From NCBI GenBank assembly GCA_905250025.1, contig CAJNOJ010000159.1, positions 182,826-246,825 of the forward strand: DNA of 64,000 bases, given 5' to 3'. The notes beneath the pieces were generated by a model. The model saw only the letters and a program-made list of their open reading frames with translations. It did no database searches and had not been told where the DNA came from. Source of the stretch: Adineta ricciae (taxonomy: Eukaryota > Rotifera > Eurotatoria > Adinetida > Adinetidae). A program made the position numbers and the translations under genes. Shown in pieces: positions 27,864-63,765 of this stretch (its first letter is position 1; each line of letters opens with the position of its first letter).

Positions 27864-29225
27864 CTATAGGGAGATAGCATCGACTAGAGTCGTCTTCATT
27901 CTGTTCTTCATCAATTTCACTTGGTCAACATCGTTAAACGTGTGCTCTTGAAAGCCCACAATTACTTCTAAAATGTCATTGACGGTCACTGCACTGATGA
28001 CAAATGTGCCACCAACGAGATTTGCGGATTGAGCGAAACCGCCGGAAAGGACTTTCCATGTTGGATCGGTTGTTTCGAATGTCCAACGGAGCAAATTTGA
28101 AATTTCCACGCTACTACGATAACCATTTGGAGAGGTCTTTCGATGTTTAATAAGCATTTCTTTCCAATCGGAGACAAATTTCAATGTGTGAATGAAAGAA
28201 ATAGTTTCATTTTCGATTTCTTGAGTAATTTGTTCTTTGATCTGACCAGCTAATGGCCAAAAGAGATCGGATAGATGCTCACTATAAGGAATGTAATGAT
28301 AACTAGGTGCGGCAGAAACAAAGATACCGATTTGTTCGTTGGAAACCACTGGGTGACAAAAACGTCGCATATTTACTGCAGAACCACACGAGAATTCCAT
28401 ATTTTTCTTGCCAAAGACATCAGTTACGGCTAGAATAAAAGAAGCCAAGAGAGCGGCATGAACTGTCGTTTGTTTCGATCGACATTTTTTATGCAACGAA
28501 TCAAGTATATCACCAGGTATTTGAAACGACACTTGCCGAGTTCGATTCCACTCATCACCAGTTAATTGAATATTACCCGCCCAAAAAGTCTGCGGAAACA
28601 AATGTTGCTTAAGAAAGCCTGGCAGAATCAGATTTTCCACGATTTTCATAATCAATGAAGACAATGGAGGTAATTTGTATGGTATCAATTCATTCATCGG
28701 TTGATCTTTGTCGAGAGTAAAGATGACAGTTGGTTTCTCTGCTAGACACCGAACAAAACTCGTGAAAAGAGCCATTCCTGATATTCCATCGGCTAGTGCA
28801 TGACTGTACGTCCAAATCAAATCTACCGTATCTCCATGAGATGGGACAACCAACACAATGCGCCACAAAGGTGAAGTTGAATTAAGTGGAAAACCGGTAT
28901 TACATTCATCAGTTACAACGTTTTCTAAGAATTCTCTCTCTTCATCGTCATGCGTTCTTTCAAGAATTTTCAGTGGTAACACATCGAAAACATCCATCGG
29001 TAGAACAATATAGAAGGGTTCTTTTCGTGCAACGTCAACTTGAAGACGTAAACGTGGCTGAGAGGTGATTGTCGAACGTATGGCTTGTTCGATGCGAATT
29101 TGCCATTGTGAAAGAGAGAAGGATGGTATATGAAATCGGAGATAACAAAGAACACTCTTATAAAATTCCAATTGATGCCGAGCAACGGAATACATTTCCA
29201 TTGGTGCAACTTTGCGATGATCCAT
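27864..29225 (-). CDS. HxxxDG-type acyltransferase (alcohol acetyltransferase / condensation-fold)
   Basis: A single-exon gene of 453 residues. The motif SHALADG (residues 141-147) corresponds to the HHxxxDG active site of the condensation-domain/BAHD/alcohol-acetyltransferase superfamily. The second histidine is the catalytic base in the family; the first position is serine here. The N-terminal layout (RLRLQVDV, then PLWRIVLVV before the motif) and a C-terminal half with LRWTFETTDPTW fit the AATase/PapA-like group that moves acyl groups from CoA to an alcohol or amine. No signal peptide or membrane segment is evident. It has no introns although its neighbours do, and such genes occur widely in bacteria and fungi, so it is a candidate for horizontal origin. 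The substrate is unknown. Confidence 0.8.
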   Translation of the reverse strand: MDHRKVAPMEMYSVARHQLEFYKSVLCYLRFHIPSFSLSQWQIRIEQAIRSTITSQPRLRLQVDVARKEPFYIVLPMDVFDVLPLKILERTHDDEEREFLENVVTDECNTGFPLNSTSPLWRIVLVVPSHGDTVDLIWTYSHALADGISGMALFTSFVRCLAEKPTVIFTLDKDQPMNELIPYKLPPLSSLIMKIVENLILPGFLKQHLFPQTFWAGNIQLTGDEWNRTRQVSFQIPGDILDSLHKKCRSKQTTVHAALLASFILAVTDVFGKKNMEFSCGSAVNMRRFCHPVVSNEQIGIFVSAAPSYHYIPYSEHLSDLFWPLAGQIKEQITQEIENETISFIHTLKFVSDWKEMLIKHRKTSPNGYRSSVEISNLLRWTFETTDPTWKVLSGGFAQSANLVGGTFVISAVTVNDILEVIVGFQEHTFNDVDQVKLMKNRMKTTLVDAISL

Positions 29226-32969: not shown

Positions 32970-34655
32970 TCATAGTGAGGTTTTCTCCATCTGACCAGCC
33001 GGTTGTTGATCGTCCGTTTTATTTTCGTCGAGTAATTCTTTAATCAACGCTTTTTCAGGTTTGTCTTCTTTCGCATCATTCTTTTCGGCTTTCCGTTGAG
33101 CTTTCTTCGGTAGAAATTTTCGGCAGAAAGTAAACCGTTTCATCAACGATCGCGTCACAACCAAGACTAAGAATGGTATTGGTGTTGCCATTGAGACAAG
33201 GATTGGGTTAGCCAGAGCGACATCGGCTTCCGGTTGAGGAAATGTCAAGCGAAGGAAAAAGATTGCAACAGCCGTATTTTGAATACCTGTTTCAATACAA
33301 ATTGCAATTGTTTTTTTCTTATCGCGAACTCCAATTAATGATGCAATTGCCCCTCCGATAAAGCCAAGCCAGGGAAGAAAACAACAAGCAACAATTGCTT
33401 TGAAATCGATGATGTAGAATATATACATATTGATATAAACTAAAACGGAAAATGATGGAATAGAGGAACCTGTGCAGAAAATCCAGTGTACCTCCAAATG
33501 TTAGAATGAAGACGAGATAACCTGAAAATAAGAGAGTCATTGGAAGCTTTCCTTTTGATTGGAGAAGGAAGTTCAAACTTACCAACGGCAATCGGATTGA
33601 GGAAACGGGCGATTCGATGTGCTAATACTGGTCGATATCGACGCAGTAACAATCCAGTCATGGCTGGAAGAAACAGGGTTATTATCGACAAAAACATATT
33701 CCACCAGGGAAATTTTGCTTTGGAAAAATCGACATAAGTCTTCCCGAGAGACCAAATCCAAAGAGGAAATGTACCGAATGCTACTGTTGTAGATAGAAAT
33801 GTTAGACACACTGAAAGGTCAACATCTCCGGCGAGCAATGCGGTGTAAATGTTAGATGAGCCACCACCTGGTGTACTCGCTGTTGATAACAATCCTAAAC
33901 TTGTCGGATCATCTAATCGAAAAACTTTCGATATTGCCACGGATAGTAATGGTAAATAAACAAGTTGACAGAAGAGTCCGATAATCAATGGAATCGGCCG
34001 TTTGAAATTATTTTTCAACTGTTCGATATCCAAGCCACAACCGATGCACAATGTGCCCCCGGTAACAAGCAAAACTACCACACCGATGAATAAAGCATCA
34101 ATGATGGACTGATGTCGCTTTATCGCAATATTAATTGTATGATTAAGAACATAAAATCCATCTTTATATTGAAGTTTTGGGCAATTTCGAAGAATTTCTG
34201 TCCGTTGCGGAGAGGAGTGTGCACAACGAATTTGCTCATTGGTGATGTTTTGCGATAAAGAACGATCAGGTCTATTCAAATAATAGTTTGATTCATCAGA
34301 CAAGTAGTCTTTCTTACCTAAATTGATTAGTATTTTCAAAATACAGATGTACTGTCAATGGTGCAAAGCCAATTAGACGGGCCAGTGCAGTGATGTTGAT
34401 TCGATTCGGCTCAATAAAATATGTAACATTGAGAATACTCAATCTTTTCAATAGTGGATTTGTTATTGACACATTCCGTACGCTGAGTGCCGATGGACAA
34501 AATTTCAGTTGCCCTGTAACGTTAAAAATGTCACGTTCGTGCACACGACGAATGACTTCATGATCATCGACATCGTCAAACTGAATGTCGCAAGATTGAG
34601 AGGAAGAAAACTGCACGGCAAACAAAATCAAAGAAAAAATAATGAACTTCGTCAT
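32970..34655 (-). CDS. SLC10-family sodium/bile-acid-cotransporter-like protein, copy 1
   Basis: Four exons (34655-34318, 34271-33583, 33521-33492, 33439-32970) give 508 residues. A signal peptide (MTKFIIFSLILFAVQFSSSQS) leads an N-glycosylatable extracellular region of about 160 residues. The BASS/SLC10 membrane core follows, with GLDIEQLKNNFKRPIP, the substrate/sodium-site block STPGGGSSNIYTALLAGDVD and IETGIQNTAVAIFF. The long extracellular lead resembles the SLC10A3/A5 branch rather than the classical bile-acid carriers NTCP/ASBT. The C-terminus is lysine/glutamate-rich and cytosolic. The third exon is only 30 nt. It lies in tandem with a paralogue 75 bp upstream on the same strand. The substrate cannot be inferred. 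Confidence 0.88.
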
Positions 34656-34730: not shown

Positions 34731-36450
34731 CTATTGGTCATTATCACTATTAGGTAATTGTTCATAATCTGCCTGATTGTGTTCTTCATTGATGCTTGTT
34801 ACTAGATCATGTCGTTTTTGATAACGTCGATAAATACTTAAGCATGTATAAATAATCAGAAGTGGAATAGGGATTGCGATAGCAACCTGAAAGAAATGTC
34901 AATGAGAAGGTGGATGAACGAACACGAAATTCTACGTACAAAAATTGGCACAACGATAGCGAGATCACTGTCCGGTTGAGGAAGAGATAGACGAAGAAAA
35001 AAGATGGCAACGCCTGTGTTTTGTAAGCCTAACGAAAGAGAAACGTTATTTAGCTAAAGGCGAGATATGATGACGTACCACTTTCGATAAATATGGCAAT
35101 GAGACGTTCTGTATTTTGTCGAGTGACGAGTGACAAGAGAAATCCAATAAGAAAGCCAGTGTAAGGTAAAATTGCACTGACGATTACAGTTCGAAAATTG
35201 ATCAATTTGAATACGTAGAGATTAGTGTAAATACCGAAGGTTAAGATGTATAAAATAAAGAATAAGGTGATAAATCGAAGAAATCGGGTGAAGCGATCGG
35301 CAATTCCAGGCTTTTGCCAACGAAGCAACAGACCAATACCTTCAAAGTCAATTCAATTAGCTATTTTTGTTCAATTCTCTCTCTTACCAGCTGGCACAAT
35401 TAAGCAAATCAACGTTGCAAACATATTTTCCCATCTAGAACATTCTCAAAAAAACATCTTCTATCCAAATCATTCCACAAAATATTTACGGAAAGTGTAC
35501 ATTATGCGTATCGATAAATTCTCGACCTAATAGAAGAATCCACAATGGAAATGTACCTTCAAAATAACAAAATAGTAACGTTCAAATCGTTCAAAACAAA
35601 CAGATAAACTAACCAAATGCAAGTATTGTACTACTGAATGTCATTGAAGCCGAAAGATCAACATCGCCACCATACATAGCCGTATACATATTCGATGCAC
35701 CACCACCTGGTGCTGAACCAGTTGATAACAATCCAATCGCTGTTGATGAATCAAGTTTCGCTAACTTAGCCAAACCATAAGCCAACTAAAACAGTCACGA
35801 TTCATTGAGGAAAAAACCATATTCGAGACCTTTTTTCAACTTACTAATGGTAAACATATAAATTGACTTGACAAACCAATAAGTATGGGAACAGGCCGAC
35901 GTATATTTGCATACAAATTCTGTGTTATCAGACGGCAACCAATTAGGAACGTTCCGATACAAACCAGGATAATCACAGCAACAGTAAAGATTGTATCAAG
36001 TACTGTACTTTTTCGTTTCACGGCGAAGTCAATACTGAGATTATTTGTATAATTAAATGCATATTTCGATTGATTGAGATACTCGGCATGTAACGATAAA
36101 CGGCTGTAACCGAGAAGAGTACCATGAACAGTTAAATTGAATGTTAAATTTTGAAATATTGGATCGAATGAAAGAAGATTTAATGGAAGAGTATTTTGAA
36201 TTTCAATTGAATGCGTATTATCAATTGATATTGACACATTTGCATACGTTAGATTATCTGTGGTGTTACAATTAATCGCAAAAAAGATGAATACATTTTC
36301 AGTGGTATCATTGATAAAGAACACCGGTGGTTTGGGTGACGTACGTGTTTGATTAAGACAAGTTAAAGAACATGGTAACAATGCTGGAGACGATGTAGCA
36401 GAAAAGATCGAGGCGAAAAATATTGTTAAAATTGTCAGTTGAAGCCACAT
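34731..36450 (-). CDS. SLC10-family sodium/bile-acid-cotransporter-like protein, copy 2
   Basis: Seven exons (36450-35845, 35785-35614, 35556-35490, 35434-35388, 35339-35079, 35028-34940, 34886-34731) give 465 residues. It has the same design as its neighbour: signal peptide (MWLQLTILTIFFASIFSATS), glycosylatable extracellular domain, then the SLC10 core with GSAPGGGASNMYTAMYGGDV and IESGLQNTGVAIFFLRLSLP. The tail is shorter and acidic. The extra introns relative to copy 1 show that the tandem duplication is old or that introns were gained or lost since. An AATAAA signal lies about 22 nt after the stop. Confidence 0.88.
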
Positions 36451-36780
36451 AACAGAATTTTAATATTCAGATGATGAGACAAAAAGAAGTTGTTTAGTTT
36501 ACCGTCGGTCATCCATGTACAATAGAAATATATCTAGTCTCGAAACTTTCTCAAATAACTCCAATCATATATCTAAGGAAACAGATGGCACTAGTTGTTT
36601 ATCTCAAATCAGATGGGAACTTTTCCGACGTCATACTTCACCAGTTATAATATTTCGGTAAATATGAATGCTTTCTACAAACCCACCATGGTACCTTTGA
36701 AAGATATGGAAAATACTGCTTACGATCATGTGTATCTGCAACCTTTTATCAGGATTTCCTTAATTTTTTATTAAATATCA
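36451..36780. other. Intergenic
   Basis: Promoter and 5' flank of SLC10 copy 2 and the 3' flank of the TFIIIC gene. An AATAAA hexamer on the minus strand at 36772-36767 lies 9 nt past the TFIIIC stop. Confidence 0.55.
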
Positions 36781-44970: not shown

Positions 44971-46023
44971 TCATCTTGTCAATCCTACCATATCCCATAA
45001 AAGATTTGTATTGTTTGGATTTAACTGTGGAAGTTTTTCTACAATTAATCGATTGAACTTTTCGATTCGTTGATTGTTCTCTCCAAGATTTGTTAAATAT
45101 AAAACAAGAACTTTTCGTTCCGCATCATCAATGCGAAATACCTGATGAGTAAAACCGCATGAATTTCCTGTATGTAAATGAATTTTACCATTAGAATCAG
45201 TCAAAAACCAACCAAGATCGTAATAATATGTTTCCAATGGCGCTTCGTCGATTCGAAATGGTTTCGCTGATAAAATTGGATAGTGGTAGTACCATTGAAG
45301 ATAATCAGTCAACGACATATAAATACCACCATCTCCTCTAGTTGCACTTGTTGTACTTTGATCGCGCAGGTCGTATTTTTCCTTATTTCTTTGTTGAATA
45401 TAACCTAGAGCTCGATTGGTGATCACAGTTCGATCGAAATCATAGAGAATGCTTGCGTTCGTCTGAAATGGTTGGAAGATATTCTCGTCGAAGTATTGAT
45501 TCAACGATTGTTCAGAAACAGTCTCGATGATTAAGCCTAAAAGAATATAGCCGGTGTTGCTGTATCGATAATGCGTACCTGGTGTGAAATATGTTTCATC
45601 GGTGAGGATATTTAACACATCGAAATCAGACCATTGCGAATGATCGTTCGAATCAAATGTTTCATAATCACATATTCCTGACGAGTGCTCTAATAAATGT
45701 TGAACTTTGACTTCTCTACTAAGATACGGACACTTTCGTTGAAATTCCATCGAGAAAAACCGTCCGAGTGTGTCATTTTTTGATAGTCTGTTTTGTTGTT
45801 CGAGTAACATAATGCCATAGGCAGTGAACTGTTTTGTTAATGATGCCAGGCGAAAGTTAGTTTCAGGTGTAATTTGCTCCTCCTTATCAAGATTTGCCAA
45901 ACCCAAACAACGTTGGTAAACTATCTGATCGTTAATTACAATCAATATCGCTACTCCTGGTCCGTTGGAATGATAATCTTCGTTGACTAAATTATCCAAC
46001 GAACGAACACTTTGCTCGTCCAT
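44971..46023 (-). CDS. Beta-lactamase-fold serine hydrolase (class C / DD-peptidase-like)
   Basis: A single-exon gene of 350 residues with the three active-site motifs of the PF00144 family in order: S61-L-T-K64 (SxxK, nucleophile serine and lysine), Y154-S-N (YxN) and H284-T-G (HTG, in place of KTG). A GDGGIYMS block, typical of class C-like esterases, precedes the last motif. In bacteria the family includes AmpC beta-lactamases, DD-peptidases and esterases; in animals it includes LACTB. No signal peptide or mitochondrial presequence is obvious, so a cytosolic place is likely. The lack of introns among intron-bearing neighbours and the bacterial-like domain suggest horizontal acquisition. 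Substrate unknown; esterase or peptidase activity is as likely as lactam hydrolysis. Confidence 0.88.
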   Translation of the reverse strand: MDEQSVRSLDNLVNEDYHSNGPGVAILIVINDQIVYQRCLGLANLDKEEQITPETNFRLASLTKQFTAYGIMLLEQQNRLSKNDTLGRFFSMEFQRKCPYLSREVKVQHLLEHSSGICDYETFDSNDHSQWSDFDVLNILTDETYFTPGTHYRYSNTGYILLGLIIETVSEQSLNQYFDENIFQPFQTNASILYDFDRTVITNRALGYIQQRNKEKYDLRDQSTTSATRGDGGIYMSLTDYLQWYYHYPILSAKPFRIDEAPLETYYYDLGWFLTDSNGKIHLHTGNSCGFTHQVFRIDDAERKVLVLYLTNLGENNQRIEKFNRLIVEKLPQLNPNNTNLLWDMVGLTR

Positions 46024-46185
46024 TGTAATGTATTTTTTTTCTTTTGAAGCGATGTCGATATTATCTATTTTGCGACATGCACATGCGCATACAATCTTTA
46101 TTTTGATAAAGAAGATAAAAGTCTACAATCGAGAAAAATGCGTTGAAACGTTTGCGTGAGACACAGCTTTTATTTGTTGAGGTGA

Positions 46186-52940: not shown

Positions 52941-54905
52941 CCCTTTTCTGAAAGAAAGGGTTATAGCGTTCTAAAATCGGTGGCTCAAAACCTAAAAGAT
53001 TGTGAGTTTGTCCAATCCAATCAGGTTGCAACTTTTTATAAACCAATGAAACCATAGAGATAACCATACGGAAATGATCCACCTGAGGTAATCAAGGTCG
53101 AGGATCACGAATCCGATATTAGTTTTTCCGTAAAAACTAGCTGTCCTGTTTTTTGCGACAACGGTTCACTTTTTTGCAAAAAGATATTTTTTTATAGTGG
53201 TTGACCGGAGGGTTTCGAGGTCGAGGATCACGAATCCGAGGTTAGTGTTGCTTAATTAATTATTAATTTTTCATTAACTAGCCACGACTTATTAACACCC
53301 ATTTTCGGAGTAGACCGAAGGATTTCTGACGTCGGGATATTCGAATTTGAGGGTAAATTTCGTCTTATTCAATGAGCCTGGGCTTGTTCCTGCCTCTTTA
53401 CAAAAGAGATATTTTTTCTTTATCTGTTCTGAAATCTTTTGTAGAAGCTGGGTGAGCTGAACGCTATTCACGGACGTCATGCGTACAAAGATAGTAGCTC
53501 AAGAACTTACACGAAAAGATCTAATGCATTGTATATAATGATGTTTCTAATTGAAGAAATCCAAGAAAGGGATATGAGCTTAGTATCATCTTTGCTTTGT
53601 AGGCTACTTACATCATGTCCTTTCATGGGAATTTAGTAGAAGTAGTTCGCAAAGTCATATATCCGTCGGCGGAATTCCATCTTAGTAACTACAGACGGGT
53701 GGACTGTAGAAACAGTATATTCTGAACTCATGCAGCACTATGAAAGATGTTCCTTTCGAAGCAAGTCATATAATAAGACTTTCTTATCTAGCTTCTTTTG
53801 GTAGTCGAATGAATAGAAGATCATGACTGTCGAAGCGACAATAAAAGAAAACCCAATCGTTCAGTTTGGAAGTTGATCAAAGGCGAAAGGAATAACAGAG
53901 ACAGCATGGTAACGGCTAGCCGTGAGTGACCGACCGGAGAGAGGTCGACGAACGACTAGGCGTTTAAATGCTAAATTAAACCTAAAGTGTACGTTTAGAA
54001 TAATCCTGCCAGGCTTCAGATAATTTTGAAAGGGATTTGACGAATGGATATTCCTCAATGAAAATATTCGACAAAGTATCATTTTGTTGACAGGAGAGAA
54101 AAGAATCGGTTTATCGCTGGAAGACACAAGCGAATGTTCAAAATTTTCAAGTAGTCTACCCAGGTCTAACAATCCCATACTCGGATCCCACCGGATCCCA
54201 TCGGATCCGATACTGAATTTTATCGAATCCTACAGGAATTCGACGGATCCGATGAAATCCTGGTGACGGAATCGCATTGGATTCCGACGGTCTCGGATCC
54301 GATCGGAACCCACGTCGGATCTCGTCGGATTCGAAACATGGATTTCCTGGATTTTCTAAGGGTCATCATAGAAAATAGCTAGAAAGATCGCTCATAAAAT
54401 TTGCAACAACCGACGGGATTTTTCTAGTCGGATTCCAATGCAATTCCGTTTCCAGGAATCCGATCGGATTTTGTCGGATGGTCGGATTCGGTAAGATCCG
54501 ATCGGATCCAGCATCGGATTTGTTGACCTGGGTACTGTGTATCGTCCGTCTATGAGTGACTTAGTAAAGCATTTATGAAAATTTCCATGCGCGTGATATG
54601 AAAATAGAAAAACAGACGACAAAGGTCAATGGTTGGCCGTCTGACTAGTCGTTGAGCGATGAATTTTCCAGTCAACATAGTTAGTGCTGGAGAATTATTC
54701 ACTAACAAATGGCTAATCGATCTGATTCCTAAAAAGACTTTTGCATCCTATTCATTCTAGTGTGTGACATAGTGCGATGATTCAGTTGAGCACTAGAAGC
54801 AATGGCAGTGCGTTTTTTCTCTTTCAAAGTCTCTGAATGTGTTCAGCATTCGGAAAAGTCTTTCAGGAAAAGGTCAACGAATCCAGCGGATGAGCGTTAC
54901 TTGTA
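52941..54905. repeat. 1.6 kb dispersed repeat, left copy (split by an insertion)
   Basis: Aligns almost base for base with 61336-62925 in direct orientation; outside these limits the two loci share nothing. Both copies begin with the hairpin-like cccttttctgaaagaaaggg and end with gagcgttacttgta. This copy is longer because a 374 bp element sits inside it. It holds three diverged modules around gaccggagg/gaccgaagg plus tcgaatccgagg that recur at 63473-63765. No transposase or reverse transcriptase frame is visible, so it is probably a non-autonomous element. The sharp shared ends favour a transposable element over a segmental duplication. Confidence 0.85.
54159..54532. mobile_element. 374 bp TA-flanked inverted-repeat element (MITE)
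   Basis: Bounded by cccaggtctaacaatcc and its near reverse complement ending gttgacctggg. It is flanked by TA at 54157-54158 and 54533-54534. The second copy of the host repeat has a single TA at 62552-62553 at the same place, so the empty site is known and the insertion limits are exact. The interior consists of degenerate GGATCCGATCGGAATCC-like words in both orientations and codes for nothing. TA duplication and terminal inverted repeats fit the Tc1/mariner or related DD34 group of non-autonomous elements. Confidence 0.85.
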
Positions 54906-56448
54906 GATTTTGTAAAAGAATAAAATCACGTACTCAAAAGAGTATTAAAATCAAAGAAAAGGATAACAAAGGGAAGAAGAAAAAGAGGAGAGAACTAGTG
55001 GAGAAGAAGCGAGAAGGAAAAAAATACTACAAAATACTCACACACAAGAGATATTGCTTAGATTGCTTATCAGGATCAGCCACTCGTCCTTTCGAAGCGC
55101 AAAAAATAAATACAAGTATCATGGAGTGGCGTATGTATTTCATAGTCTACAGCCTCGGCTGCACATGGAAGTCATGTTGGGCGATCTTTGGCAGTAATCA
55201 AAATTGCAATGTACAGATTGAGAACCACCAAGCTGAAGTGATGGCAATGCTAAGAAGCAAAATAAGTTTAATCTGAACAACTGATCAAACGTAGCAAAAT
55301 TAGTTATCATTGGGATCCTTAGCATCTTTATGATCATAGGCTGCTACTACATCCGCATACAGCTCTGGAAAACTTAAAAAAATACGCATACACAGAAGCA
55401 GTTGAAAAAAGGGCAGAACGAAACAAAAGACCAACCATTTATCATATACACGAGAGATAGAAATAACCAGCTAGTTAAGGAGGAACTACAAGAAGTATAG
55501 ACTCTTTAAGCCCTTTCCCCTTCTTTCTTTATCTGATAGCATAATGGAATGGAGACAGCTTAACTTTGCATGCAAAAACTAAATTACGTAACTACATGTT
55601 CTGTTTTCTCTCATCAGTTTTATATGCATAACTCTCTCTCAAGCAAAGCATTTTCTATGTGCATTCCCTTTCTCGCCTTTTATCTACTTTCTATTTTAAA
55701 TTTTAACTTTCTTCTCTCTTTTGTTCCCTTTGTCTCTTCTAAACAAGTCCATCGCTATAACGTATAGAATTGTCTTACTCTCGCTCAATGTTTGTTTTTT
55801 ATGCCAAGTAACTATGCTTGATTTTTTGTACGCGTTCATCTCAATATTACAAAAAGTCGTGAGCGCTTCCGAGCGAAACGACGTAAGGAAATAAATCTGA
55901 GCATAAACTAAAAAAAAGTAACCTTGACAATGATATTGGGTCGCAGCGTGTGATGCTAGATTCTTTGATTTATCGAGGTACAGATCTCGGTCAAACCAAG
56001 ATGAACAACTCAATTCGCATACTAGACGTTCAATTGAAATCAACTATTCATGAGCTCCAATATCCAATGCAGTTAGCAGGGGCATCTATCGAAACTCATT
56101 TCTCTGCACCGCACATACAAACCAAACCAAACGAAATACATAGATAAACCATGGACTGAAATCATTTGAAGTATTCTGGTAAGATTCAATCAGTCTTATA
56201 GCATATCTCTTGTAGACATATGTAATGGCGTTTCGCCTCAGACAGAATATCAAACTGTTCCATATCTAAAATCGATCTAAATAGAGGTGTATTACTTAAC
56301 AATCAATTCGAACAAAGAAGAAAAGCTGTTTCAATTCATGCTCTCCGTTCACTGATGAACATTCAAATTCTCTTCTTCTTCTTTAACAGCAATTCAGCAC
56401 AAATCATTTTCTGATTCTCACTTTTCTAGATTGAATTCAGCTTGTACG
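54906..56448. other. Intergenic, no gene recognised
   Basis: Between the left repeat and the PPR gene. Some short frames occur but no linked exons. It must contain the PPR promoter near its right end. Confidence 0.5.
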
Positions 56449-59400
56449 ATGTTTTGTGGTAAATGCTCACTGACAATTCGGTGTCCCTTTCTACCGTTAA
56501 ATGAAATCTCATCCTTCGTCACTACTCGTCATTTCTCAACTACGTTAAATGTACAAATGAAGAAACTCATTGATTCCAAACGATATCGACATGCTCTCGA
56601 CATTTTTGATAAGCAATCACACGCTGCTGATGATTTCGCTCTGAACATGGCACTCAAAGCGTGCAGTAATTTGCCAGACTATCGACGTGGACTTGAAATC
56701 GTTCGACAACTCTCACCCAAATCTCTCAACAATCCTTTCATTCAAACATCACTTGTTCATTTCTACAGTGAGTGAAAACAAACGACAGGATGTGAAGGAG
56801 AGACGTGCTGACTCGTGGCAAAGATCAGAATGAAACAGTTTTCTCATCTCTTGTGACTGTTTCATGATCCATTTCCCATACTTTTCGAAGAGAACATTCT
56901 AAAATATTAGCGTTTGTGTGACACTCTCATATGACCGCAAGACAATGAAAATAAGAAGTTGTTTCTATTTGAAGTGAAATCCGGTGACTTGAAGTGTGCA
57001 ATCGGCTTGTTTAACTCAATTCCGGTGAAGACGAATCCACTTTATAAAACTTTGTTCGGAGGTAGATTTTTATTTAACTGCTTGAAAAATAAATATGTTC
57101 TGATGTTTAGGGCTGATATCGATGAAAAAGTCGAAAGAAGTGTTGAATTTGTATGAACAGAACAAAATGAAGTTAGACGAAGGTGTTTTTGTGATGGTAT
57201 CAAAGGCATGTTCTGAAATATGTGATGATCGAGCGAAGAGGATAGGAAAATTATTAATTGACGATTTACCTGAAGATTTGAAAGGTTCTGAAAAAGTGAT
57301 GAACTCGACGATCTTTATGCTGATGAAATTTGGAAACGTCGATGAGGCTGAGAAACTGTTTCACCAAATGAAACACAAATCAATTTACACTTATGGTGCT
57401 ATGATGAAAGGTGAGTAAAACTTTTCGATTGATAAACAACACCGATTCGATTCAACTTTATCAAATTTGTTAAGGTTATAACGATAATAAACTGTTAGAG
57501 AAAACATTGGATCTGTTTGAGACATTACCATTCGTTGCAGACGAAGCGATCTACGCGATGGTTTTAAGCTCTTGCTCGCAGGTTAGAGATGGTCGTGCGA
57601 GAAGAATTGGAAAACGGTTAATCGATAATTTACCTGAAGATTTGAAAGATTCTGAAAACGTGATGAATTCGACGATCTTTATGCTGATGAATTTTGGAAA
57701 CGTCGATGAGGCTGAGAAGCTCTTTCGCCAGATGAAACACAAGTCAATTTACACTTATGGTGCTATGATGAAAGGTGAGTAAAAGTTTTGGATTGATGAA
57801 AAACGCCCAATCGTTTCAACTTTATCAAATTTGTTAAGGTTATAACGATAATAAAAAGTTCGAGAAAACATTGGATCTATTTGAGACATTACCATTCGTT
57901 GCGAACCAAGCGATCTACGCGATGGTTTTAAGCTCTTGCTCTCAGCTTACGAATGATCGTGCGAGAAGAATTGGAAAGCAGTTAATCGACAATTTACCTG
58001 AAGATTTGAAAGGTTCTGAAAAAGTGATGAACTCGACGATCTTTATGCTGATGAAATTTGGAAACGTCGATGAGGCTGAGAAACTGTTTCACCAAATGAA
58101 ATACAAATCAATTTACACTTATGGTGCTATGATGAAAGGTGAGTAAAACTTTTCGATTGATAAACAACACCGATTCGATTCAACTTTATCAAATTTGTTA
58201 AGGTTATCACGATAATGAAATGTTTGAAAAAGTGTTGGATTTGCATGTTAATATGCCCAGGGCTGTGGATGAAGTTATGCATACAATTCTGTTCAGCACA
58301 TGCACACGTCTATCCAATGATCGAGCATTACAAACAGGAAAAGAACTTCTGCGCAAGATGAACAAGTCCTATTATAACAATAATATCGTCATCACATCAG
58401 CCATTCACATGTTGATGAAATTCGATCTGGTCAATGATGCTGAACGTTTGTTTCGTCAAGTCAAAACAAAAAGTGCTCTCACTTATCATGCAATGATCAA
58501 TGGATACAGTCAATTGGACGAGTTGGACAAGTGTTTTCAGCTGTTTGATCAAATGAAAAGTGATCAAATTGTTCCAAATGAAGTTGTATTTCTTTCAATG
58601 ATCGGTGTTTGTGCAAAAATTGCCATACGCTCGGTATCTCAGTCGGTTGCTAATCAGTTACCTAGTCATATGAAAAGTAGTCGAAATATTCAAACTGCAC
58701 TGATTTCGATGTGGGTAAGTGTTGTTGATCCAGTAGAAAACATCGTTCTAGTGACAACTGATGAAAGTATGTTTGTTTTGATTTTGTTCAGGGCAAAAGT
58801 AGTTCAATAGAAAAAAGTAGGGAAGTATTTGAATCACTGGATGATCCAGATATGGTGACATATAGTTCAATGAGTATGTTTAGCTGAACATATATGTTTC
58901 ATGAACGAATAATTGTATATTTGATCTTTTTAGTAAATGCCTATGGATTGAACGGGATGGGTGTTGAGGCTGTCGAACTGTATAGAAGAATTCCTTCTGA
59001 TTTGTGTAACGAAGTAGTAAACGTGTGTGCGTTGAATGCGTGTTCTCATGCCGGTTTGTTAAATGAATGTCGTCACATATTCGATCAGATACCTCACAAA
59101 ACAACAAAGATTGTCACCACAATGGTTTGTTTCTTTGTTTGACCTCATCTCAATGAGACCATATATGTTGATGTGTTAGGTTGATTGTTTGAGTCGTTTG
59201 GCAATGTTTGATGAAGCAGAATCAATCATCGAAGACTATGAAAAGACAAATCCACCTTCGTCCGCTATGTACAGTGAGCATTACGAATATAGAGAAAACT
59301 CTTGATCAATCTCTTCATTCACATTTCATTTTAGCGGCATTATTATCTGGAGCACGGAATGTTCGTGACTCGAATCTGTCTAATCGAATCTACAAGAAAA

Positions 59401-60080
59401 TGCAACAACTGTTTCCTGATGAGAAAAACACACTCATAGCTGGTTCCGTTCTCTTGTCAAACATTTATTCGTCGATTGGTGATCATCATCGTGCAGAAGA
59501 TATCCGAACCAATAGAATCAAACAGTTTGGATACAATGTGAAAGTTGGCTTATCTTGGACTTCGGTGAACAACCAATTGGTGGTAGGATTTGTTTGAAAA
59601 CGTTACGGAGCTGAGAGGTGAAGTTGATTTTCGTTGCGCTATTCTTCTTTTTAGCGATTCAAAGCTCATGATCATTCTCATCCTCAATCAAAAGAGATCT
59701 ATGAAGAACTGCAACGTTTATCGTGTGAGCTCCGTGAACATGGTCACATATTCGACAGCAGTTGGATCACTCGTCCAGTGAAAGAGGATGAAACAGTGGA
59801 AAGTGTGTTGTGTGGTCATAGTGAAAAGTTGGCGATTGCATTCAACTTCATTCAACAACCACCTCCTTCCATCATACAAATCAGTAAAAATCTTCGTGTT
59901 TGTGGTGATTGTCGTAAGTGAACAAAATATTGGCACTGAAATTCAGTCATAGTTGTGTTTTTCTTAGATGCGGCTACGAAACTCATAACGAAAATGCGTC
60001 GGTGTGAAATCATCATTCGGGACGCAAATCGAATTCATCATTTTTCCAATGGAGAGTGTTCATGTCAAGATCATTTCTGA
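56449..60080 (+). CDS. PLS-class pentatricopeptide repeat protein with C-terminal DYW cytidine deaminase domain
   Basis: Twelve exons (56449-56767, 56975-57061, 57111-57410, 57475-57774, 57839-58138, 58203-58714, 58792-58873, 58934-59124, 59180-59273, 59335-59582, 59655-59913, 59968-60080) join in phase to 934 residues without a stop. The N-terminus is basic and hydroxylated with RHFSTT, like a mitochondrial presequence. A PPR array in P-L-S order follows (motifs such as GNVDEAEKLFRQMKHKSIYT), then an E-type region (LLSNIYSSIGDHHRAEDIR, GLSWTSVNNQLV) and a DYW domain. The domain has SHPQSKEIYEEL, the deaminase core GHSEKLAIAFNFI (HxE), KNLRVCGDCHAATKLITKM (CxxC) and RDANRIHHFSNGECSCQDHF at the end. 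In plants such proteins bind organelle RNA and deaminate C to U. They are not typical animal proteins but have been reported from rotifers. The terminal triplet is DHF instead of DYW. It is flanked by direct repeats. Confidence 0.93.
57111..58202 (+). repeat. Three tandem 364-bp exon-intron units inside the PPR gene
   Basis: Exons start at 57111, 57475 and 57839, exactly 364 bp apart, and each is 300 nt (100 codons, phase 1 at both ends) plus a 64-nt intron. A fourth, diverged exon starts at 58203, again 364 bp on. Each unit encodes about one P-L-S triplet. Units one and three are nearly identical, including the whole 64-nt intron, while the middle unit differs in exon and intron. Because phases are symmetric, units can be gained or lost without breaking the frame. 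Confidence 0.92.
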
Positions 60081-60418
60081 ATCGTCGTTTCTTCTCTCAG
60101 TCAGATAGTGTATGTTTCATGAAATAAATTAAATGAAAAGTTGTTTTTGTCGTCAAAAGATAGCTGTAGATAACTTATGTTCCAGAAAAGAATTTAACAT
60201 TTCAAGGCTTTTCACACTGTGGATAGCATGGGCTGTAGATATATTGTGCACAGTTATGATTGGCGACAGAAGCGTAAGATCGTTCTGATGATTTGTTTTA
60301 AGAAAATATTGTTTTCCTACCATACACACCGATTGATGTTAACATGGCGTTGCATGGCTTTTTTCATCCACAATTGTGTCATCTCTTTTTTGGGCGCCTA
60401 CCAATAGACAAAGCAAAC
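60081..60418. other. Intergenic, 3' flank of the PPR gene
   Basis: An AATAAA hexamer at about 60123-60128 follows the PPR stop by some 43 nt. No gene is seen beyond it. Confidence 0.5.
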
Positions 60419-60853
60419 CTTTGCTAGAATTAATGCAATTTTTAATGAATCTGTGAAGGGTAAACTAAGCGCATACCAATCACAAGATTATTTCATTGAA
60501 TTTGGATTGACTGGAGATGGTGAGTGGACTTTCATGATTGTTTTAAGATCCTTGTCCAGCCTTCTATCGAAGTAGCAGGTGATAAGGTTCATTCGATGAA
60601 AGTGTGGATGATTGAACTGAATCCATTAATGGAAATAACTGATGAAGCGCCTTTCAGTTGGCAACACAAGAATCATCTAATACAAGGTGAATGTTGTGAG
60701 AACGTAGCAAGAACACTATTTCGTGTAACAGTAGAGACCCTCTCGGGCTCATGGACTATATTACACCGACTCCATTTGACAGTGGATAAAAACAATGAAG
60801 TGTCTGAACAAGAAAATCTTGTTCTATTCGTAGTCAATTATCTCCCGTTATGA
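60419..60853 (+). pseudogene. Gene fragment, possibly ATP-grasp / CDC123-like
   Basis: A coding-like stretch (GKLSAYQSQDYFIEFGLTGD) continues after a frame change near 60520 into an open frame of about 108 residues ending at 60853. The block KVWMIELNPLMEITDEAPFS followed by W recalls the VxxxNPF...FSW end of ATP-grasp (R2K/D123-type) domains. No start or upstream catalytic part is visible, so it is probably a remnant. The frame change might instead be an unrecognised short intron. The family call is weak. Confidence 0.3.
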
Positions 60854-61335: not shown

Positions 61336-62925
61336 CCCTTTTCTGAAAGAAAGGGTTATAGCGTTCTAAAATCGGTGGCTCAAAACCTAAAAGTTTGTGA
61401 GTTTGTCCAATCCAATCAGGTTGCAACTTTTTATAAACCAATGAAACCATAGAGATAACCATACGGAAATGATCCACCTGAGGTAATCAAGGTCGAGGAT
61501 CACGAATCCGATATTAGTTTTTCCGTAAAAACTAGCTGTCCTGTTTTTTGCGACAACGGTTCACTTTTTTGCAAAAAGATATTTTTTTATAGTGGTTGAC
61601 CGGAGGGTTTCGAGGTCGAGGATCACGAATCCGAGGTTAGTGTTGCTTAATTAATTATTAATTTTTCATTAACTAGCCACGACTTATTAACACCCATTTT
61701 CGGAGTAGACCGAAGGATTTCTGACGTCGGGATATTCGAATTTGAGGGTAAATTTCGTCTTATTCAATGAGCCTGGGCTTGTTCCTGCCTCTTTACAAAA
61801 GAGATATTTTTTCTTTATCTGTTCTGAAATCTTTTGTAGAAGCTGGGTGAGCTGAACGCTATTCACGGACGTCATGCGTACAAAGATAGTAGCTCAAGAA
61901 CTTACACGAAAAGATCTAATGCATTGTATATAATGATGTTTCTAATTGAAGAAATCCAAGAAAGGGATATGAGCTTAGTATCATCTTTGCTTTGTAGGCT
62001 ACTTACATCATGTCCTTTCATGGGAATTTAGTAGAAGTAGTTCGCAAAGTCATATATCCGTCGGCGGAATTCCATCTTAGTAACTACAGACGGGTGGACT
62101 GTAGAAACAGTATATTCTGAACTCATGCAGCACTATGAAAGATGTTCCTTTCGAAGCAAGTCATATAATAAGACTTTCTTATCTAGCTTCTTTTGGTAGT
62201 CGAATGAATAGAAGATCATGACTGTCGAAGCGACAATAAAAGAAAACCCAATCGTTCAGTTTGGAAGTTGATCAAAGGCGAAAGGAATAACAGAGACAGC
62301 ATGGTAACGGCTAGCCGTGAGTGACCGACCGGAGAGAGGTCGACGAACGACTAGGCGTTTAAATGCTAAATTAAACCTAAAGTGTACGTTTAGAATAACC
62401 CTGCCAGGCTTCAGATAATTTTGAAAGGGATTTGACGAATGGATATTCCTCAATGAAAATATTCGACAAAGTATCATTTTGTTGACAGGAGAGAAAAGAA
62501 TCGGTTTATCGCTGGAAGACACAAGCGAATGTTCAAAATTTTCAAGTAGTCTACTGTGTATCGTCCGTCGATGAGTGACTTAGTAAAGCATTTATGAAAA
62601 TTTCCATGCGCGTGATGTGAAAACAGATGACAAAGATCAATGGCTGGTCGTGAGTGGCCGTCTGACTAGTCGTTGAGCGATGAATTTTCCAGTCAACATA
62701 GTTAGTGCTGGAGAATTATTCACTAACAAATGGCTAGTCGATCTGATTCCTAAAAAGACTTTTGCATCCTATTCATTCTAGTGTGTGACATAGTGCGATG
62801 ATTCAGTTGAACACTAGTAGCAATCACAGTGCGTTTTTCCTCTTTCGAAGTCTCTGAATGTGTTCAGCATTCGGAAAAGTCTTTCAGAAAAGGTCAGCAA
62901 ATCCAGTGGATGAGCGTTACTTGTA
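61336..62925. repeat. 1.6 kb dispersed repeat, right copy (uninterrupted)
   Basis: About 1590 bp, a direct copy of 52941-54905 without the 374 bp insertion, with only scattered substitutions and a few short indels between copies (more near the right end, about 62615-62660). It carries the empty TA target at 62552-62553. It encloses, with its partner, the PPR-DYW gene and the gene fragment at 60419. No coding capacity is evident. Confidence 0.85.
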
Positions 62926-63310: not shown

Positions 63311-63424
63311 TCGTTCGTTTGTCCGTACGTTCGTCCGTACGTTTGTCCGTACGTTCGTCCGTACGTTTGTCCGTACGTTCGTCCGTACGTTTGTCCGTAC
63401 GTTCGTCCGTACGTTTGTCCGTTC
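63311..63424. repeat. 12-bp minisatellite
   Basis: About nine tandem copies alternating cgttcgtccgta and cgtttgtccgta, so the higher-order unit is 24 bp. Read on the minus strand it gives a repeated NVRT peptide, which I regard as an artefact of the 12-bp period. Confidence 0.9.
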
Positions 63425-63472: not shown

Positions 63473-63765
63473 GGTTGACCGAAGGGTAATCGGGGTCGAG
63501 GAACTCGAATCCGTGGTTAGTTTCTCGAAAAAACTTTTTGTTCGTTTTTTGCGACAACGGTTCACTTTTTTCCAAAAAGATATTTTTTTATAAGGGTTGA
63601 CCGAAGGGCAATCGGGGTCGGGGAATCCGAATCCGAGGTTAGCTTCTCGAAATTCCAATTAGCTAATTAGGTAATTAACTAATTAAGTAATGAATTTTTT
63701 TTTGTTGTCGAGTAAGGATTGACCGAAGGGTAATCGAGGTCGAGGAACTCGAATCCGAGGTTCGT
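63473..63765. repeat. Three 122-bp tandem modules
   Basis: Units begin at about 63473, 63595 and 63716 with ggttgaccgaagggtaatcg or a variant, followed by gaactcgaatccgagg. The spacer of the first unit contains ttttttgcgacaacggttca, which also occurs in both 1.6 kb repeats. The array is thus a relative of that family. Confidence 0.8.

What the first reader, a model, noticed from the sequence alone, without database searches (positions are those of the whole stretch)
56449..60080. Intact plant-type RNA-editing factor (PPR-DYW) gene in an animal genome
The sequence shows a 12-exon gene whose 934-residue product carries a P-L-S repeat array, an E-type region and a full DYW domain with HSE and CGDC zinc/catalytic motifs. 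DYW proteins carry out C-to-U editing in plant organelles and are absent from nearly all animals; a few have been reported from rotifers and protists, so the class is known but its function in animals is not. The spliced, host-like gene structure with short introns suggests it has been domesticated rather than being contamination. A presequence-like N-terminus suggests mitochondria, which would imply mitochondrial RNA editing in this animal.
Basis: partly seen in the sequence, partly recalled or inferred. Interest (0 to 1): 0.92.

Follow-up and report, generated by a model that had tools for sequence, protein, structure and literature searches.

The report
Plant-type RNA-editing gene in an animal
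This animal chromosome carries a complete, intron-containing gene for a plant-style RNA-editing protein; genes of this kind were already reported from rotifers, but I found no test of whether any animal really edits its mitochondrial RNA this way.

Summary
At 56449-60080 (+) a 12-exon model with 11 GT-AG introns gives 934 aa without a stop: P-L-S PPR motifs, an E/E+ region and a DYW deaminase domain. Against the OTP86 structure all seven zinc ligands, the catalytic Glu and the gate Lys are kept; the terminal Trp is Phe, so it ends DHF. The host is almost certainly an animal: a T-type calcium channel exon lies on the contig, a neighbour has 51-63 bp introns, codon usage fits neighbours. Direct repeats of 1.2 kb flank the locus, so reads should confirm linkage.

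Extra: exons 3-5 are tandem 364-bp exon+intron cassettes, each adding one PPR triplet in frame; units 1 and 3 share a converted-looking tract; dN/dS is about 0.3. By my by-eye register, 17 of 21 motifs lack a canonical PPR-code pair.

Rotifer DYW proteins were in print by 2014 (PMC4202320), so the class is known. Best reading: a mitochondrial C-to-U editing factor; import, target and activity are untested.

The parts
56428..56429 (+). AG of a pyrimidine-rich acceptor-like site 19 nt upstream of the ATG; possible 5' UTR intron end or trans-splice acceptor
   Evidence: read by eye; not tested
56449..56767 (+). exon 1: start codon, N-terminus with RHFS at residues 27-30, first PPR motifs
56975..57061 (+). 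exon 2
57111..57410 (+). exon 3: 300 nt, phase 1-1, one PPR triplet worth (cassette unit 1 with intron 57411-57474)
57475..57774 (+). exon 4: 300 nt, phase 1-1 (cassette unit 2 with intron 57775-57838)
57839..58138 (+). exon 5: 300 nt, phase 1-1 (cassette unit 3 with intron 58139-58202)
57264..57474 (+). 211-nt tract of unit 1 with one mismatch to unit 3, intron included; looks converted
   Evidence: 0 of 5000 permutations as long
58203..58714 (+). exon 6
58792..58873 (+). exon 7
58934..59124 (+). exon 8
59180..59273 (+). exon 9
59335..59582 (+). exon 10: E1/E2 region and start of PG box
59655..59913 (+). exon 11: E+/gating region, HSE and CGDC of the DYW deaminase
59968..60080 (+). exon 12: end of the DYW domain (HH...CSC...DHF) and stop
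60123..60128 (+). AATAAA, candidate polyadenylation signal

Best explanation
A nuclear gene of an animal, most likely a bdelloid rotifer (inferred, not tested), encodes a PLS-class PPR-DYW protein. Shown here: the gene model, the domain order and the retained catalytic and zinc-binding residues. Inferred: it is made in the cytosol, imported into mitochondria through its N-terminus, binds a stretch of mitochondrial RNA with its PPR array and lets the DYW domain deaminate a cytidine just downstream to uridine. Also inferred: after arrival in the animal line it gained short introns, and the array then grew by tandem duplication of an exon+intron cassette worth one P-L-S triplet, under purifying selection and with exchange between copies, so its RNA target length or identity has been changing inside the animal.
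For: Open 934-aa model with 11 GT-AG introns. Pfam PPR, DYW_deaminase and E+ above cut-off; 9kfx, OTP86 and DYW1 as best solved relatives. Seven zinc ligands, catalytic Glu868, gate Lys889, Asp932 kept (roles from PMC7611903 sections 4 and 7). dN/dS 0.29, 0.34 and 0.30 among the three cassette exons. Introns 2-5 all in codon 10 of a P motif, phase 1. RSCU correlation with five neighbours 0.59-0.67, neighbours among themselves 0.51-0.79 in 10 pairs, antisense control 0.20 and 0.24. In other organisms a DYW gene in the nucleus led to discovery of mitochondrial C-to-U editing (Naegleria, as told in PMC4758236, passage; Acrasis, PMC4202320 section 21).
Against: Terminal Trp is Phe; Trp960 of OTP86 and its counterpart in other factors matter for editing. 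The Lys before the PG box (OTP86 K823, whose mutant is much weaker) aligns with Val, with a Lys next to it; Arg912 is Gln. E motif below its cut-off. Only 4 of 21 motifs, and 2 of the 14 P and S motifs, have a canonical fifth/last pair in my by-eye register (code recalled). GC3 of 0.384 is above that of all six neighbours compared, 0.154-0.342. Weak N-terminal amphipathicity. No transcript, target or editing data.
Confidence: 0.55

Rival explanations
1. The protein is expressed and conserved but no longer edits; it acts as an RNA-binding PPR factor (stability, processing or translation of mitochondrial RNA), the DYW domain being kept for structure or another activity.
For: Terminal Trp lost, K823 and R912 counterparts changed; most code pairs non-canonical.
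Against: Seven zinc ligands, catalytic Glu and gate Lys all kept, which drift would not favour.
Confidence: 0.25
2. It edits RNA, but outside mitochondria or on a nuclear transcript.
For: N-terminal targeting is only weakly supported; plant factors can edit nuclear transcripts in human cells (PMC9508816, search listing only).
Against: RHFS motif at 27-30 and net charge +4 over residues 1-40; known DYW factors act in organelles (established knowledge).
Confidence: 0.08
3. Contamination or misassembly: the segment between the direct repeats does not belong on this animal contig.
For: 1219-bp direct repeats at 99.84% on both sides, and no reads to inspect.
Against: Introns of 49-77 bp (ten of 11) match a neighbour's five of 51-63 bp; codon usage within the neighbours' range; both repeat copies lie on the contig. 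A misjoin within the same genome would leave the gene animal.
Confidence: 0.07
4. A recent pseudogene with an accidentally open frame.
For: No expression data.
Against: 934 codons open across 12 exons and dN/dS about 0.3 among cassette exons, although three pairs of repeats within one gene are few data and one pair is affected by conversion.
Confidence: 0.05

Closest known systems
Rotifer DYW-type PPR proteins (Adineta ricciae, Philodina roseola), cited to Iyer 2011 and Schallenberg-Ruedinger 2013
   Same: Same class, same kind of host; the gene here may even be one of them or an orthologue (no sequences available to compare)
   Different: I saw no account of their gene structure; cassette exons and DHF end could not be compared. 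The 2013 paper is not held; known through PMC4202320 and PMC5295000 passages
OTP86 (At3g63370) DYW domain, PDB 7o4e/7o4f
   Same: 46% identity over the aligned part; seven zinc ligands, catalytic Glu, gate Lys
   Different: Trp960 is Phe, Arg912 is Gln, Lys823 aligns with Val
Synthetic PPR-DYW protein, PDB 9kfx/9kfy
   Same: PPR, E and DYW align in order over residues 467-933, E 5.6e-107; 51% identity in E2-DYW
   Different: Designed consensus array; the animal array has P motifs of 30-35 and L motifs of 32-38 residues with odd code pairs
Naegleria and Acrasis DYW proteins with mitochondrial C-to-U editing
   Same: Non-plant hosts of the same class; the Naegleria ones group with the rotifer clade at 0.93 posterior in PMC4202320 (section 21)
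   Different: Acrasis has two confirmed editing sites there; none is known to me for rotifers. No tree was built here

Membership tests
PLS-class PPR-DYW RNA-editing factor | Tandem PPR motifs | tested here: met
   Pfam PPR E 4.2e-48, 9 stretches
PLS-class PPR-DYW RNA-editing factor | P-L-S alternation | tested here: met
   21 motifs in seven P-L-S triplets, by-eye register against 9kfx; PLS designs 5iww and 5iwb among hits
PLS-class PPR-DYW RNA-editing factor | E1/E2 motifs | tested here: inconclusive
   E motif 14.5 bits, cut-off 27.3; region aligns with 9kfx
PLS-class PPR-DYW RNA-editing factor | PG box / E+ | tested here: met
   E+ 27.1 bits, cut-off 24; but the Pro of PG is Val and the K823 counterpart is Val
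PLS-class PPR-DYW RNA-editing factor | HxE(x)nCxxC catalytic zinc site | tested here: met
   His866, Glu868, Cys894, Cys897
PLS-class PPR-DYW RNA-editing factor | Second, structural zinc site | tested here: met
   His898, His921, Cys928, Cys930
PLS-class PPR-DYW RNA-editing factor | C-terminal D-Y-W | tested here: not met
   Ends DHF. Letter for letter not a fixed requirement, since OTP86 ends DSW (PMC7611903 section 4), but its Trp is conserved and here is Phe; so filed as a member of the domain family by Pfam, with activity left open
PLS-class PPR-DYW RNA-editing factor | Canonical fifth/last code in P and S motifs | tested here: inconclusive
   2 of 14 P and S motifs; register by eye, code recalled
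PLS-class PPR-DYW RNA-editing factor | Organelle import | tested here: inconclusive
   RHFS at 27-30, net charge +4, largest moment 0.38 in 30 windows
PLS-class PPR-DYW RNA-editing factor | C-to-U editing of a target RNA | not testable with these tools
   No transcriptome or mitochondrial DNA of the host; no whole genome held

The most novel reading that the evidence does not exclude
An animal runs a live plant-type C-to-U editing system in its mitochondria, and its specificity factor evolves by adding intron-flanked, phase-symmetric exon cassettes worth one PPR triplet each, kept alike by exchange between copies, with an RNA-recognition code that departs from the plant one.
Probability: 0.3. 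Interest if true: 0.85.

Novelty: new member of a known kind. Interest (0 to 1): 0.55.

Why it matters
Plant-type organelle editing by DYW deaminases has been shown in plants and a few protists. An animal gene with the whole catalytic apparatus makes a sharp test possible: are mitochondrial transcripts of this animal edited? A yes would give animals a second kind of base-conversion RNA editing, gained by horizontal transfer. The cassette exons would also show how a foreign modular RNA-binding protein is re-tuned once it has host introns.

Tried and rejected
Relatives: the E2-DYW part as a single query, and alignment A1 (this protein plus three PDB chains), gave no confirmed relative in genome contigs (112 and 65 pattern stretches) or viral contigs (5 and 22 stretches); these scans start from short peptide patterns and can miss. 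tblastn found none in plasmids or phages. No eukaryote collection was on hand, so no DYW tree was made and the donor is untested. The window's whole genome is not held.

Structure: AlphaFold on exon 11 alone (86 aa, no alignment) gave mean pLDDT 41.8 and was discarded.

Target prediction from the PPR code was dropped: too few decodable motifs.

Rfam (gathering) and ARAGORN gave nothing in the window.

Literature: ten searches. In what I looked at I saw no test of mitochondrial editing in rotifers. I did not open PMC3260318 or PMC6600014, PMC2837639 or PMC4784904, nor most of the 17 papers. The library lacks most subscription papers, so this is no proof of absence.

Full report
What is there. 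The chain of 12 exons from 56449 to 60080 has 11 GT-AG introns, ten of 49-77 bp and one of 207 bp, and gives 934 residues without a stop. Splice sites were chosen by eye; each of the 11 introns, if retained, brings a stop (9) or shifts the frame (7), several both. The ATG is the first in its open frame, and AATAAA starts 43 nt past the stop codon.

Domains. Pfam finds PPR repeats (E 4.2e-48), the DYW deaminase (E 3.4e-33, residues 841-933) and the E+ motif above its cut-off; the E motif is below its own. Best solved relatives are the synthetic PPR-DYW 9kfx (E 5.6e-107) and the OTP86 DYW domain 7o4e (E 1.3e-35), with DYW1 7w86 third for the DYW part. By eye against 9kfx the array has 21 motifs in seven P-L-S triplets.

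Catalysis. Residue roles come from PMC7611903 (sections 4 and 7 and passages). Mapped: the zinc-1 ligands His866, Cys894, Cys897; the zinc-2 ligands His898, His921, Cys928, Cys930; catalytic Glu868; gate Lys889; Arg892, Asp896, Lys902, Arg919 and Asp932 are kept. Differences: Arg895 is Lys (as in 9kfx), Arg912 is Gln, Thr914 is Ser, Ser959 is His, and the terminal Trp960 is Phe. In the alignment the Lys823 counterpart is Val with Lys next to it. Trp960 and Lys823 mutants are weaker in that paper, so activity is likely but not assured.

Recognition. With the fifth and last residue of each motif (the definition in PMC13041630, passages; the base assignments are recalled), 4 of 21 motifs have a canonical pair: N/N and T/N in two L motifs, T/D in an S motif, S/N in P2. 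Three P motifs have Gly at position five and four S motifs have S/S. The register was set by eye, so this is a lead only.

Cassettes. Exons 3, 4 and 5 are each 300 nt with phase-1 ends and each is followed by a 64-bp intron, a 364-bp unit repeated three times. Exon identities are 218, 224 and 274 of 300 for pairs 1-2, 1-3 and 2-3; the introns of units 1 and 3 are identical (64 of 64), the other pairs 56 of 64. Between units 1 and 3 the last 211 nt hold one mismatch while the rest holds 75; no permutation of 5000 gave such a stretch. The same test gave 1 of 5000 for pair 1-2 (53 nt) and 3429 of 5000 for pair 2-3. This fits gene conversion or unequal exchange. NG86 dN/dS is 0.29, 0.34 and 0.30. 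Introns 2-5 fall in codon 10 of a P motif, phase 1; introns 1 and 6 fall in codon 12 of an S motif but in phases 1 and 0. The natural reading is that introns came first and the array then grew by duplicating intron-bearing units in the host.

Host. One exon at 23601-24062 matches T-type calcium channels best (E 6.4e-69 to alpha-1I); such channels are an animal trait, known also from close unicellular relatives (recalled). Other ORFs include a chromo shadow domain, GSKIP, bile-acid symporter, Med4 and a mitochondrial carrier. The carrier, joined by eye, has five introns of 51-63 bp. Codon usage of the PPR gene correlates at 0.59-0.67 with five neighbours, within their own range of 0.51-0.79, antisense control 0.20 and 0.24; its GC3 (0.384) is higher than in the six neighbours compared (0.154-0.342). 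That the animal is a bdelloid rotifer is inferred from the known occurrence of the class and was not tested.

Surroundings. The gene lies between direct repeats: 52941-54159 and 61336-62554 (1219 bp, 2 mismatches), continued by 54533-54905 and 62552-62925 at 91%, with an insert of 373 bp only in the left copy. They look like a mobile or satellite family, with a third diverged piece at 63485-63642 (83%). They are a place where an assembly could misjoin.

What is known. PMC4202320 (passages and section 21) lists DYW proteins of Adineta ricciae and Philodina roseola and finds Naegleria proteins grouping with the rotifer clade; PMC5295000 (passage) also names rotifers. The 2013 survey they cite is not held. 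So this is a member of a known class in a known kind of host; what could be new is the cassette structure and the DHF end, which I could not compare with the published rotifer genes.

Verdict. An intact animal PPR-DYW gene, most likely a mitochondrial C-to-U editing factor (0.55), with the editing itself unshown.

Noticed in passing
52941-54905 and 61336-62925: Direct repeats flanking the PPR gene, 99.84% alike over 1219 bp then 91% over the rest; a 373-bp insert sits only in the left copy; a third diverged piece lies at 63485-63642.
   Followed up: partly
60524-60850: ORF weakly like CDC123 (best PDB E 0.063; no Pfam hit at 0.01), between the PPR gene and the right repeat; perhaps a gene remnant.
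   Followed up: partly
44974-46122 (-): Single-exon 383-aa open frame with a Beta-lactamase family domain (E 6.4e-42); bacterial-type gene in an animal contig, origin untested.
   Followed up: no
27867-29225 (-): Single open frame of 453 aa matching alcohol acetyltransferase and condensation domains; another candidate foreign gene, untested.
   Followed up: no
63312-63422: Tandem array of a 12/24-bp unit, 98% matches at period 24.
   Followed up: no
33443-34354 (-) and 35839-36459 (-): Bile-acid symporter ORF (E 1.3e-30) with a second, similar-looking ORF beside it (by eye; its scan failed).
   Followed up: no
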